Below are positions 33,801 to 39,800 of a stretch of 64,000 bases of DNA, in pieces (within the stretch, counting starts at the first letter, position 1; each line of letters opens with the position of its first letter). Origin of the DNA: Diadema setosum. Its lineage: Eukaryota > Echinodermata > Echinoidea > Diadematoida > Diadematidae. The notes under the pieces are model-generated. The model did not search any database. It worked only from the letters and a program-made list of their open reading frames with translations, and was not told the origin of the DNA. The position numbers were made by a program, and so were the translations under genes. Where the stretch lies: contig NC_092685.1 of NCBI RefSeq assembly GCF_964275005.1, positions 30,304,366 through 30,368,365 on the forward strand, in the 5' to 3' direction.

Positions 33801-36800
33801 CTTGAAAAATTTGTTTACAAAAGAACTATTACTTTTTTTGAAATTCAATAATATACTCTCAAATTCTCAGTTTGGATTTTGGGAAAAACATAGCACCACA
33901 CATGCATTATAGAGTTTTGTAGAAAAAGCGGCACATGCTATCGACAAATCTTCATATCTGATAGGTTTGTTCCTGGACTTCTCCAAGGCCTTCGACATCA
34001 TTAATCATGATATTTTACTTAATAAATTACGTCATTACGGAGTGCGTGGGAAGGCCTTGGAGTGGTTCAGGAGCTACCTCATGAACAGGAAGCAATATGT
34101 CTCTTTAAATGGTTGTAATTCACAAATATTAAATGTCAAATGTGGGGTCCCACAGGAAAGTTTATTAGGTCCGCTTCTGTTTCTTGTTTACTTAAATGAT
34201 TTCTGTAGATCATCAGATGTTCTTAGTTTCATTCTCTTTGCAGATAACTCAAATTTATTATTTTTTTTCGCATAATCCTCTTACCCTTGTAAATACATTA
34301 AATTTTGAATTAGAAAAAGTCGCTCAATGGATAAAAACTAACAAATTATCTCTCAATCTTCAAAAAACAAAATATATGCTTTTTAGCAACTCCACAAAGG
34401 CACTACCTGTTGATACTGTCTTTGATGGCACTCCGCTGGAAAATGTTTCTCATGTCAAATTTTTTGGAATAACAGTTGATAATAAGCTTTCATGGAAATT
34501 TCATATTGATAGTTTTATGTAAGATTATTTCACGAAATATAGGTATAATTAACAATATTAAATTTTTTCTTCCTTTGTCGTCCCTGATTACATTATATTC
34601 ATCCCTCATATTGCCTTATTTGAATTATGGTATTCTTGTGTGGGGAAATACATATCAAACATTCTTAGATAAATTACTTCTCTTACAAAAGAAGTCACTG
34701 CGTATTTATGTCACACTGCATTTTTGTCTCATACTGATCCGTTATTTTTTTAAAATAAAATATAAAAAATCAAAGATTTGTATTTGTTTAATTTAGGACA
34801 ATTTATGTATAATTATAATAAAAATAATCTTCCAAATATATTTGAAACAATGTTTTCAAAAAATCAATCCGTTCACAATTATCCAACAAGACGATCCAAT
34901 GAATTCCGTTTGCCATTTTTTAGGACTTTGCTGGCTCAGCACACCTTCATCTACGATGGGCCAAAGTATTGGAACTCACTTCCCAACGACATACTATCAG
35001 CACAAACTTTGAATTCTTTCAAGAACAAATTAAGATTATTTTTATTGAAATCTTATGATATACAACCGAATTAGGTTCGTTTTTAATGTCTCAATCAAGT
35101 CATTTTTTTACAAGCATTAAACAATCATACAGAAATTTGACAGATTATTTTTTTTTAAATAATCTGTTTTTTGATAGATTATTTTTTTTAAAGAAAAATA
35201 ATCTGTCAAACATAAGTTTTCCTCAGGTATTACTTTTATTGTACCGTATAACAGTGTGTCTATTCTCTTTCTCTTTTTTTTCCGCTTTTCTGCATTCATA
35301 CCGGTATATGTACCCAATCCTTCGCAATATCAATCCAGGGAGCGTTTTATCATTACACTTACATCATGAAGTCCAGTCTGCTTGTGTCCACGATGGCGCG
35401 TGTTGTAGTCTCATTTTCCCCTTTTTTCTTCTTTTTCCTTTTTTCTTTCTTTTTTTTTTTCTTCCTAAATTGATTTCATGTCAGTTGACATTGGTTTGTT
35501 TGATTTTGTTTCATGTAATGTTTGTAGTTCCATTAAGTCATTATTTGTTTTCTTATGTATTTTCCGAGGGTCCCATACCCTACAAGCTTTGCTTTTTAGT
35601 GGGACCCTCCATTTCCATTCCAATCCTTGTATTATGCATATGTATATACCTTAGAAAATGAATTTATGTTGTTATGTTGTTACTCGTGATCACATATACG
35701 TTTTTTTTTTTTATTGTTACAAATATGTTCTGTTAATGCATTGTATATAATTTTCCCTGTTTATTCAATGGAAATGAAAATAAAGTTGAAGTTGAAGTTG
35801 AAAAAAAAAACCAAAAAAAAAAAAAACGTTTAAAGGTTGAGATTAACATTCACAACTTTCCTGTTTCTGAAGAAGCAAATTCTGAGTAGAAAACGTTTTC
35901 ACCGGAAAAACATATTGCGTGATTTTGATATAATTTCTGTGTTACAAAATAGGGATGGTTACACTCATGGATGATTTTCAAATTTGATTTCACTCACCCT
36001 GGATGGTCACTGAACTTGAAAACCGCAATTTTGCATGCACGTAACCTCTGCAAACAATGATTACGACAGTGGAATAAGAGCACAGCGTCTTCATGTAAAC
36101 AGTGCATTACTGTGAAACATTATGTGTTGAAAGTAGAACCAAATCTATCTATTCACTCCATTATTCTGAATAATTCACTCTTAAACATTTTACCGGGTGG
36201 TGTTCGTTATTCCGAAGGTTCAATATTCCGAAGGTTCGTTATTCCGAAGGTTCGTTAATCCGAAACACGCAAATTCCCTATACCTAGAGGTTCGTTAATC
36301 CGAAAATGAAAAAGGGTTCGTTAATCCGAACATTTGTGGCGTTATTCCGAAGGTTCGTTATTCCGAAGATTTGTTCATCCGAAAATGAAATTCGGAAAAA
36401 ACGAACCTTCGGAATAAGGAATCTTCGGACTGAAGAGCCTTCGGAATAACGAACCTTCGGAATAACGAGCTGTAACCCATTTTACCTACACGACTTTGAG
36501 GAACCCAGTGACTTTATAAAGGCCCCTCCAGGCTCCAGTATGCATAAGATTTATCTTATGTATACATCTTATATTCTGTCGAAAGAAAATGCCCTTGATT
36601 CTGTAATTGAAACTTTATTGACGCTCGTCAGTTCTAAAAGTACTATATTATGGGTATACAAACAAAACAGAGAGATAACCTCGCCATGCAGGACTGTGAA
36701 CATCGACAAAATCAGGGAGATTATCATTCATTCTATCTGCTACAGTCAGGCCATTATGTTATGTTACTCCCGCACGCACTGCGCACGGGGCCGCTTCATG

Positions 36801-39800
36801 CGGCTGCGTGCAGGTTCGTGCGATCTCGCACGGGAGCGTATGGCTCCGTGCGCCCCTGTACGCGCCCGTGCGTAGTCGTGCACCTCCGTGCGGATCTGCA
36901 CGCCCCCGTGCAGATCCGCACGCCTGCGTGCGGATCCATACTCCCTCGCACGCTGTCGCACGGACCCGTGCGGGTCTGGCGCACGGTCCCGTGCGGGTCG
37001 GGCGCACGGACCCGTGCGGCATTGGGGTGCGATTTCGCACGGCCCCGTGCCGCCAGTGCTTGGTTCCCGCATGATCCCATCTCACCTCCCTGGTTCCCGC
37101 AGTGCTTACACGGTACGTGTGTATCAGGTGTATACCGCGTGCGAGTCCATGCGCCATTCCCCGGCCGACAGTTTCATCGCAAGCGTGAAATAGACGATTC
37201 CCGACAATACAAGGCATGTTACTTGCGCCAAGGAGCTTCAAACCCTTGCTTGCGCATTGCCAGTCAGTCGGCAAGCCGAAAACCCCGTCTAGAATATCCA
37301 AGTTCTCGCACGGGTGACCTCGAGTTGACCCCGCAGATCATGATCACTGAATTACGTTTTCACATGATTTTTTTTTTTTTTTAACAGGTTAAGGTTAAAA
37401 CCTGAATGCAATTTTGTTTAAATTTTCCAAGAGCGACATGAAAGGTCATCGACTTCGTGCATGGCTAATTCATTACCGATGTCCCGGAAATAATGGGTTC
37501 ACATACTCGTCTAAAATTCCCCTAAGAGTCTTCTTTTTCATTGTAGGGCACTAACGAACGCATACCATGTAAAAGGAAAATTATTATCCAGCTATAAGAT
37601 GATACCTAAGGTGTAACGTGATGATTAGATGGGTCAGCAGCGCGCGCCAGCTGAAATCGTAAGGATATCATTCCTTTACTCGGCACGAAATCGCGAAAAT
37701 ATTGTACTGTCCCACATATAGAAATTGACGTGTTCCATGGAGGCCCTTTGTGTGTTATGAGCGAACCCAGCGTAACTGACATGGTCTATTATAAGCGTCT
37801 ACTAGCTGTGATATACTGTGCTTGTGTCTGTCGGTGGGCATTATGTACAAGTAGCCTATATTGCCTCTTGCTTGGCCTCTCTCTCTCTCTCTCTCTCTTC
37901 TCTCTCTCGCTCTCAACAAGTCATGAATTCACTTTACCCATCATGCCTAATCGAACTACGACATGATTGAGCTAACCGCGCCTTTTTATTCTCATAGTCA
38001 AAATCAAACTAATTCTTTACATAATTAAAAAAAAAAAATCTTCATATAATTTCTCAAAATATTCAAAAGATGGCCTCAGTCAAAACTTTCTACAAAGATT
38101 GCATACGGCAATCTTTACGGCCTAAACAAGTTTGTTAGAGTTATTAGTTCACCCTGTGACGATGACTTCGATTGCGTTTTGAACTTGTACCGAACTACTT
38201 TCAACACAACTATTACCTTTATAGTTCGATTGATGAACTAGTCTTTTGAATTGATAACCGACATTCGTAATCGTAAGCATACAGTAACAAAATACTGTCA
38301 ATAACAGTTGGAAAATGCAAATGCTATAATAATAGCGCGAAATACACGAGTAACGATCATCTTCATACATTCTAATTCCCAAGTGATGTCGCTTCGAAAA
38401 TGACACATGGTTTGACTACTGCTTCAAGCAAAGAAAAGGAAAAGGAATGGGATATACTTCTAATGATAATATCACGCCGTACAAGGCATTCAACTGTATT
38501 TGGTAATGTCGGTTACGTTTTTGTGCGCTTTACGTACGGAAAATAAAAGGCAGATTGATGCTATTAAATGCTAACACACCGCATTCAAATGATTTTTTGA
38601 AATAGACCGTGTACAATGTAATGTTTTAGTATTCGGTTTGAAACTTTAAATTTGCGAGTCCTTTATAAAGTTATATGGGTTATTACATTATCAAGCAAAA
38701 ATTACAGTACTTTAAGGATTCGGATTTGCTCAGAAGATTAACAATGCTATCTTTGGCAATAGTTTGCAACAGAGACAATCCTCTTCAATAGATATACAAT
38801 GTAATTCTGTTTTCATAAATAGAAAGGAAAACGTAAATAAGTCAACTTTATAACTTCAATCAGCTTTCTCACCAACTGAACTTGATTTGATCTGCCGTGC
38901 ATGATATCGCTATGTGTTCTATTAATTCTATGATATTGTTAAATTTGAGTGTTTAATTGTTTAAGTGTTTTTTTTTAATGCAGAATATTTCAGGTAAGTA
39001 TAATTCATTGAAGCTAATAATGTTTGTACATATGACGTGTTCGTTGTTTTGTATGTTCATTTTTATAATATATCACGTGTCCATTATCTGATTATTCAGC
39101 AGATTTCAACCGTTTTGTTTAGTGCCTGATACATGTAACGGGCAAAATTCTTTAGCGCATAAGCAAACACACAACTTTTGGGAATAAATGTATGTCTTAA
39201 TGATTGTATCTTATGGAAGAAAACTCGTCTCCTTGCCTGAATTTCAGCTTCTTCTTTTTCAAGCTTGCGGGAAAGAAATAGTTGAACATCAATCGCAATC
39301 ATAAAAAGAAGCCACATCCTTAAAAATAAACACAGGAGTACTGAGACGCACTACGAAATAAAAACTGGCCTGTTATCACTATTGACAACGTATGACAATG
39401 AAATGCTTCCTTTTGTTGGGAGGGGGGGGGGGGTTATTGATTATTCTGAAGGTTCATAGATCACACAATTTATATGGTTCGCTATTAGCTTAGGTTCGTT
39501 AAGAAAAAATAAAATAAACAGATAAATGCGTTCCTTTTCCGGTGGTTTCTTTACCCGAAAGTAATCAAGCAATCACTTATTTCAGTATAAGATTTGTGAA
39601 TACAAAACGAAACGACGACGGCCTTTAAAGTATTAATTCCGAATATAATTGTAAATATGACTATCGGTCTATACTCAACTTCTCAAATGCAGAAAGATTG
39701 CAACTGTAAATGTGGTGTTCTGTAAAAAAAAAAAATAAAAAATAAAATAAAAATAAAAAATAGGTTTAAGCTACAAGTTAATGGTTCTGTATAATTGATT

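What the first reader, a model, noticed from the sequence alone, without database searches (positions are those of the whole stretch)
36774..37062. CpG-rich array in an exact 10-bp register with an alternating purine-pyrimidine core
Seen directly: about eighteen consecutive 10-mers end in CGTGC or CGCAC (rarely TGCAC, TGTAC, CATAC) while the intervening five bases vary. All core variants differ by transitions only, so the core stays pyrimidine-purine alternating. One turn of B-DNA is about 10 bp, so the cores would fall on one face of the helix. Alternating CG/CA/TG tracts are known to favour Z-DNA. The transition pattern also fits decay of methylated CpGs in an older CGCGCG core. Function (protein-binding array, nucleosome-phasing or simple minisatellite) is unknown.
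Basis: partly seen in the sequence, partly recalled or inferred. Interest (0 to 1): 0.78.

Follow-up and report, generated by a model that had tools for sequence, protein, structure and literature searches.

The report
Ends of a giant jumping gene
The odd 10-base repeat array is one end of a 16,000-base DNA transposon with no detectable enzyme of its own that has recently multiplied through this animal's genome, and its regularly spaced short sites are most likely where the enzyme that moves it takes hold.

Summary
The array is real: lag-10 autocorrelation z = 5.3, reached by 0 of 1000 shuffles. It is half of a pair. A matching inverted array lies at 52527-52785, and both sit just inside inverted tips (TACAGTCAGRCCATTAWGTTATG...) of one element, window 36741-52841 (16.1 kb). 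Each end has 17-18 CGYRCG sites every 10 bp, then 23-bp spaced pairs. The genome (912.7 Mb, probably echinoderm) holds 161 such tips, 0 in the reversed control. Of 30 sampled left ends, 20 are identical over 345 bp; two full copies differ by 0.6% over 16 kb. Insertion duplicates TA, shown by one empty site. No transposase was found inside. A 432-bp derivative of tips plus arrays alone has also moved. Cores vary less than spacers.

Best reading: a giant non-autonomous TA-target DNA transposon whose helically phased arrays are multi-site protein-binding ends, moved by an enzyme supplied in trans. Binding and enzyme are inferred, not shown. It works like CACTA/Spm and Galileo/Foldback ends but fails their membership tests. 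Z-DNA is weakly supported; nucleosome phasing was not testable.

The parts
36741..52841 (.). Whole element with its flanking TA on each side (16,101 bp; element proper 36743-52839). Orientation arbitrary.
   Evidence: Inverted tips, copies elsewhere with the same boundaries, TA duplication at an empty site of another copy.
36741..36796 (+). Left tip: TACAGTCAGGCCATTATGTTATGTTACTCCCGCACGCACTGCGCACGGGG..., inverted copy of the right tip
   Evidence: Alignment; tip found 161 times in the genome at up to 3 mismatches, 0 in the reversed control.
36797..36972 (+). Left array, outer zone: 18 CGYRCG-type sites in strict 10-bp steps
   Evidence: Site scan, autocorrelation.
36957..37051 (+). Left array, inner zone: sites alternating 10 and 13 bp apart, 23-bp period, mostly inverted pairs CGCACG-N4-CGTGCG
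37080..52500 (.). Interior without detectable transposase; contains diverged internal duplications (about 38.0-39.3 kb like 44.0-45.5 kb; about 47.0-48.0 kb like 51.0-52.2 kb)
52527..52612 (-). Right array, inner zone: three inverted pairs GGCACG-N4-CGTGCG with 23-bp period, plus two flanking sites
52620..52785 (-). Right array, outer zone: 17 CGYRCG-type sites in strict 10-bp steps
   Evidence: autocorrelation z 7.9.
52786..52841 (-). Right tip, inverted copy of the left tip (TACAGTCAGACCATTAAGTTATG...)

Best explanation
The array is the subterminal end of a giant non-autonomous DNA transposon. The typical element is about 16 kb, with inverted tips, a TA target duplication and no detectable transposase. 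Shown: the paired arrays, the tips, the copies, a TA duplication, recent amplification, and past movement of an element made only of tips and arrays. Inferred: a transposase supplied in trans, or a DNA-binding partner of it, binds the CGYRCG cores. Because the sites repeat about once per helical turn, many molecules would load on one face of each end, which gives specificity and helps two ends 16 kb apart to pair. The tips are then cut and inserted at TA by a Tc1/mariner/pogo-type (IS630 group) enzyme.
For: Second, inverted array and tips. 161 tips in the genome, 0 in the reversed control. 20 of 30 left and 24 of 30 right ends identical to their majority sequence. Two whole copies differ by 95 of 15,970 bases. 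TA on both sides in 9 of 9 copies with both ends in hand, and one empty site, 37 of 37 bases. 432-bp array-only element with both tips and TA on C5, and the same junction on C17 and C22. Core less variable than spacer: 54/68 against 28/68 identical between left and right arrays; 11/126 against 19/93 changed in a diverged end; 7/300 against 15/214 variable columns.
Against: No protein was shown to bind, and no partner enzyme was found: the only Tc1-like element whose tips I read has a different tip. The inner 23-bp zone is absent from the array-only elements, so it is not essential. One 10-bp unit can be lost and the end still occurs at two sites, so exact unit number is not critical. Core-against-spacer tests (b) and (c) are modest (p = 0.017 and 0.014). 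Within-array unit duplication could mimic part of the pattern.
Confidence: 0.72

Rival explanations
1. The array is a hitch-hiking minisatellite: a 10-bp repeat grew by slippage at the ends of a transposon that needs only its tips, and it has no role.
For: Exact unit losses of 10, 10, 23 and 46 bp in 4 of 7 unusual right ends fetched; a 44-bp gap in diverged end L070.
Against: 30 left and 30 right ends align without gaps. Left and right arrays keep core and register while spacers differ. The array-only derivatives on C5 and C17 kept about 15 units from each side, though C17 has lost some.
Confidence: 0.12
2. The array binds a host factor (transcription factor, CpG-binding or chromatin protein) that protects, silences or expresses the element, rather than the transposase.
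For: CpG-rich arrays (CpG observed/expected 1.22 and 1.29, against 0.71 outside the element), 46 and 47 CpGs per array; old copies lose CpG (10 of 16 changes).
Against: Arrays at both ends in inverted orientation next to the cleavage tips, and mobility of tip-plus-array elements, fit a role in transposition more directly. The interior, too, has a high CpG ratio (1.01), so CpG richness is not special to the arrays.
Confidence: 0.12
3. The element is autonomous: a spliced or novel transposase gene lies undetected in the interior or in the longer (20-33 kb) copies.
For: Copies of 9.9-32.8 kb exist and only three long copies (window, C6, C7) plus one 27-kb copy were read; exons under 50-60 aa were not scanned.
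Against: 106 stop-free frames gave no transposase at E 0.1 or better; no DDE_3 or DDE_1 hit lies in 45 element intervals (at least 92 of 93 DDE_1 hits and 118 of 118 DDE_3 hits checked). The search covers only those two domain families and capped candidate lists.
Confidence: 0.15
4. Z-DNA former or nucleosome-phasing element.
For: Alternating pyrimidine-purine cores about once per helical turn.
Against: Longest alternating run is 9-10 bp, broken by free spacers; identity as a transposon end explains the layout without either effect.
Confidence: 0.04

Closest known systems
Tc1/mariner/pogo (IS630 group) DNA transposons and their non-autonomous derivatives
   Same: TA target duplication and inverted tips starting after TA with CAGT; TA is the classical duplication of this group (PMC7386202, passages read). 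The CAGT start as typical of Tc1-like ends is recalled, not looked up.
   Different: pogo elements are 1.20-5.20 kb (PMC7386202, passages); this is typically 16 kb without a transposase. Two phased arrays of about 25 sites each; in Sleeping Beauty and Bari the secondary sites are tandem repeats within bipartite inverted repeats (PMC3688188, passages).
CACTA/Spm elements (TNPA-bound subterminal repeats), e.g. soybean Tgmt
   Same: Large element (20.5 kb for Tgmt), short subterminal motifs in direct and inverted orientation, bound by an element-encoded protein that can act in trans (PMC2613891, passages read).
   Different: Tip is CAGTC, not CACTA; target duplication is TA, not 3 bp; sites are in a 10-bp register; no transposase found.
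Foldback-like elements: Galileo, Tetris, Drosophila FB, sea urchin TU
   Same: Inverted ends with internal tandem repeats; in Galileo extra sites in them bind the transposase's THAP domain (PMC3688188, passages). Tetris is apparently non-autonomous and shares its tips with a MITE (PMC4079207, passages).
   Different: Arrays here are about 250 bp and 72% complementary over 191 nt between ends; target duplication is TA. The 10/20/31-bp FB units, 15-bp TU units and their 8-9 bp duplications are recalled, not looked up.

Membership tests
Tc1/mariner/pogo (IS630 group) | TA target-site duplication | tested here: met
   TA on both sides in 9 of 9 copies with both ends in hand; in 8 no further duplication, the ninth lies in a TA repeat. 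Empty neighbouring repeat unit with one TA, 37/37.
Tc1/mariner/pogo (IS630 group) | Terminal inverted repeats | tested here: met
   alignment; 161 tips, 0 in control.
Tc1/mariner/pogo (IS630 group) | DDE/D transposase of the group encoded by the element or a demonstrated autonomous partner | tested here: not met
   No transposase in 106 frames; no DDE_3 or DDE_1 hit in 45 intervals; partner not identified. Membership is therefore not claimed, only TA-target behaviour.
CACTA/CMC (Spm-like) | CACTA/CACTG tips and 2-4 bp (here typically 3 bp) target duplication | tested here: not met
   Tips are CAGTCAGRCC after TA; duplication is TA.
CACTA/CMC (Spm-like) | Subterminal repeated short motifs in both orientations | tested here: met
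   This is a resemblance in design only.
Foldback / Galileo (P superfamily) | Long terminal inverted repeats with tandem subrepeats and 7-9 bp target duplication (duplication length recalled) | tested here: not met
   Duplication is TA; arms 191 nt at 72%.
Minisatellite | Repeat number varies freely between copies or alleles | tested here: not met
   No gap in 30 left and 30 right ends (best-scoring ends only). Against this: 4 of 7 unusual right ends fetched lack 10, 10, 23 or 46 bp. Alleles not testable.
Z-DNA-forming tract | Long uninterrupted alternating purine-pyrimidine run | tested here: not met
   Longest run 9 bp (left) and 10 bp (right).

The most novel reading that the evidence does not exclude
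A new kind of transposon end. A TA-target (IS630-type) transposase, or a partner protein, assembles as a one-faced filament on about 25 CGYRCG sites per end, phased at one helical turn, with the 23-bp inverted pairs as a second module. This lets a coding-free 16-33 kb element be mobilised efficiently in trans, which the sizes usual for this group would not predict.
Probability: 0.2. Interest if true: 0.72.

Novelty: new variant of a known kind. Interest (0 to 1): 0.52.

Why it matters
DNA transposons without their own enzyme are usually short. Here a typically 16-kb element with no detectable transposase has recently multiplied at near-identical sequence, alongside a 432-bp version that is nothing but its tips and arrays. 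If the helically phased sites load the enzyme, this gives a testable model of how multi-site ends pay the cost of length, and a compact end whose parts can be tested one by one.

Tried and rejected
Coding reading of the array: the frames listed across it run through the repeat in several frames of both strands; no family was sought for them, and I set this aside on that ground only. RNA families: 11 matches in 36500-53100, none reaching its gathering score. Amphioxus 'mirage' minisatellites, recalled from memory, were looked for first (search listing only) and dropped once the genome structure was seen. Viral contigs: 0 exact matches to the tip. A diverging relative of the tip (TACAGTCAGACCATTANH): 1 place, 1 in the control, so chance (its surroundings, L086, show no array). 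Print: none of the ten listed of 105 papers holds the 14-base tip string (counts 0 in the ten listed; the other 95 were not listed); other searches listed no title or abstract start describing this element; Repbase could not be searched. In one search the equal lengths of the ends come from fixed slices; what counts is that the alignments needed no gaps. A search for the 12-mer TACAGTCAGRCC near pogo-like genes did not complete.
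Full report
OBSERVATION. The array at 36774-37062 is genuine. Identity at lag 10 is 0.441 against 0.298 for dinucleotide-preserving shuffles (z 5.3; 0 of 1000 reach it), with depleted lags 9 and 11. There are 18 six-base sites (CGTGCG, its reverse complement CGCACG, or near variants) in strict 10-bp steps from 36797 to 36967. The steps then alternate 13 and 10 bp, mostly as inverted pairs CGCACG-N4-CGTGCG with a 23-bp period (the 23-bp unit is also seen).

IT IS ONE END OF SOMETHING. 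A second array with the same plan lies at 52527-52785 in the opposite orientation: 17 sites in 10-bp steps, then three 23-bp pairs (lag 10 z 7.9 over 52527-52813). Outside both arrays are inverted tips, TACAGTCAGGCCATTATGTTATGTTACTCCCGCACGCACTGCGCACGGGGC on the left and its near-identical inverse on the right; ungapped, the arms are 72% complementary over 191 nt. The element with its TA on each side spans 36741-52841.

COPIES. The window lies in a genome of 912.7 Mb in 102 contigs. The three-site pattern CGYRCG-N4-CGYRCG-N4-CGYRCG, its own reverse complement, has 451 places against 25 for the control. The 343-bp left end gave 171 first-look candidates and the right end 172; the 40 scored in each search match at 98% or more (left) and 96% or more (right). 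The 31-bp tip occurs 161 times at up to 3 mismatches and 0 times in the reversed control; only the first 100 places, all exact, on C1-C16, are listed. From those 100 places plus four partner positions of other calls (one approximate) I paired 45 elements of 9.9-32.8 kb, median 16.6 kb, 18 of them 15.9-16.6 kb; 2 more of the 100 tips belong to the 432-bp element below and 12 stayed unpaired. An earlier pairing from partial lists gave 28 of 40 left ends paired at 13.6-27.1 kb, 12 unpaired.

AGE. I aligned 30 left and 30 right ends, the best-scoring ones and so biased to similarity. Twenty left ends (345 bp) and 24 right ends (340 bp) are identical to their majority sequence, with no gaps in the alignments. 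Two whole copies, C6:27727310 and C7:25242413, differ by 95 of 15,970 aligned bases, gaps aside. The window copy is about 92-97% identical to these in its main aligned pieces, with gaps and rearrangements, so it is an older relative. A 27-kb copy on C4 is more rearranged. Amplification of the main group is recent.

TARGET SITE. In 9 of 9 copies with both ends in hand TA flanks each side; in 8 no further duplication is visible and the ninth lies in a TA repeat. One copy (L011/L062, C7:27.28-27.30 Mb) sits in a short tandem repeat: its flanks joined on a single TA are identical over 37 of 37 bases to the uninterrupted neighbouring unit. That is an empty site and shows a TA duplication; it is one site.

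NO ENZYME FOUND INSIDE. Of 106 stop-free frames (54 from the window interior and 43 from extra parts of the 27-kb copy, at least 60 aa; 9 of at least 50 aa from the C6 copy), none matched a transposase at E 0.1 or better; 16 families matched one frame each, best E 0.0007, none a transposase. All 118 listed Tc1-type DDE_3 hits and at least 92 of 93 listed pogo-type DDE_1 hits lie outside the 45 intervals. Other transposase families were not sought genome-wide. The genome does hold intact Tc1-like frames (up to 398 aa) and pogo-like frames. The one Tc1-like element I could read (L087) has arms starting TACAGCTGTCC, not ours. The partner is unidentified.

ARRAY-ONLY ELEMENTS. At C5:25156046-25156477 lies a 432-bp element with both 31-bp tips intact and TA on each side. 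It consists of the right array's units 1-15 joined to the left array's units from about 15 outward, with no interior and no 23-bp zone. The same junction occurs on C17 (L085, tips and TA present, further internal losses) and on C22 (L081/L082, tips partly lost, two places sharing a flank, so probably one insertion duplicated). The deletion product therefore reached at least two clean sites and probably a third: tips plus arrays are enough in cis, and the 23-bp zone and interior are not needed. Two further relatives were read: L083 is a left end with interior, L084 a truncated left end. A right end lacking one 10-bp unit at the same place is found at two sites with different flanks (L073, L074), so unit number is not critical.

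CORE AGAINST SPACER. (a) Left against right array in register, 17 units: 54 of 68 bases identical at core positions 1, 2, 5 and 6, 16 of 34 at the two central positions, 28 of 68 in spacers (p = 9e-6 for the outer core against spacer). (b) Main right end against the diverged end L070: 11 of 126 core and 19 of 93 spacer bases changed, p = 0.017; gaps set aside. (c) Variable columns in the 60 ends: 7 of 300 core, 15 of 214 spacer, p = 0.014. In an old copy CpG changes dominate (10 of 16 private changes of L080; 1 of 7 in L081 and 5 of 14 in L085), which would raise core variation, so its low level is notable. Tests b and c are modest, and unit duplication could contribute to a.

ORGANISM. Two matches to bindin (best E 2.9e-54; 0 of 14 control genomes) point to an echinoderm; bindin as an echinoderm marker is recalled knowledge. 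No species is claimed.

MECHANISM. Shown: paired phased arrays, inverted tips, TA duplication, recent amplification, sufficiency of tips plus arrays for past movement. Inferred: that a trans-acting IS630-type transposase or an accessory protein binds the cores, that one-turn spacing puts bound molecules on one face, and that this helps distant ends pair. Galileo is the nearest tested precedent: its THAP domain binds about 70 bp from the end and at further sites in the tandem repeats (PMC3688188, passages). In CACTA elements TNPA recognises subterminal repeats and can be provided in trans (PMC2613891, passages). Membership in either is rejected by tip and target duplication; a Tc1/mariner/pogo-type enzyme is likely from TA and inverted tips but unproven. 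A review of giant transposons (PMC6431247, passages) treats coding cargo rather than coding-free elements of this kind in the passages I saw.

VERDICT. An ordinary class of thing, a DNA transposon end, in an unusual form: giant, without detectable coding, recently active, with helically phased arrays and an array-only miniature. New variant of a known kind.

Noticed in passing
window 28120-28345 and 36202-36468: Short repeats of TTCGTTATTCCGAAG in direct and inverted orientation, the second about 270 bp outside the element's left tip.
   Followed up: no
window 30083-30856 (-): 257-aa frame matching Pfam NXPE4_C (E 1.7e-50), probably a host gene or exon.
   Followed up: partly
window 63037-63116: Imperfect TTAGGG-like array (telomere-type unit, 11 copies, 80% match) away from a contig end.
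   Followed up: no
window 38004-52202: Interior of the element is built of diverged internal duplications, direct and inverted (e.g. 38.0-39.3 kb like 44.0-45.5 kb at about 84-90%), and its CpG ratio (1.01) is higher than outside (0.71).
   Followed up: partly
G000 C2:1547528, C3:44662236, C4:5398275, C7:21123742, C9:264149, C12:23809420, C19:30509691: Seven equal-scoring pogo-like (DDE_1) hits without stops, 568-aa frame in six and 532 in one: a young family, candidate source of enzyme; tips not read.
   Followed up: partly
L087 (C1:25248800-25250900): Tc1-like element with an open 347-aa frame and arms starting TACAGCTGTCC.
   Followed up: partly
L084 and L070: L084: a left end truncated inside the array and fused to unrelated sequence. 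L070: a diverged right end followed by a different tandem/foldback repeat (CACGAGACCGACA...).
   Followed up: no
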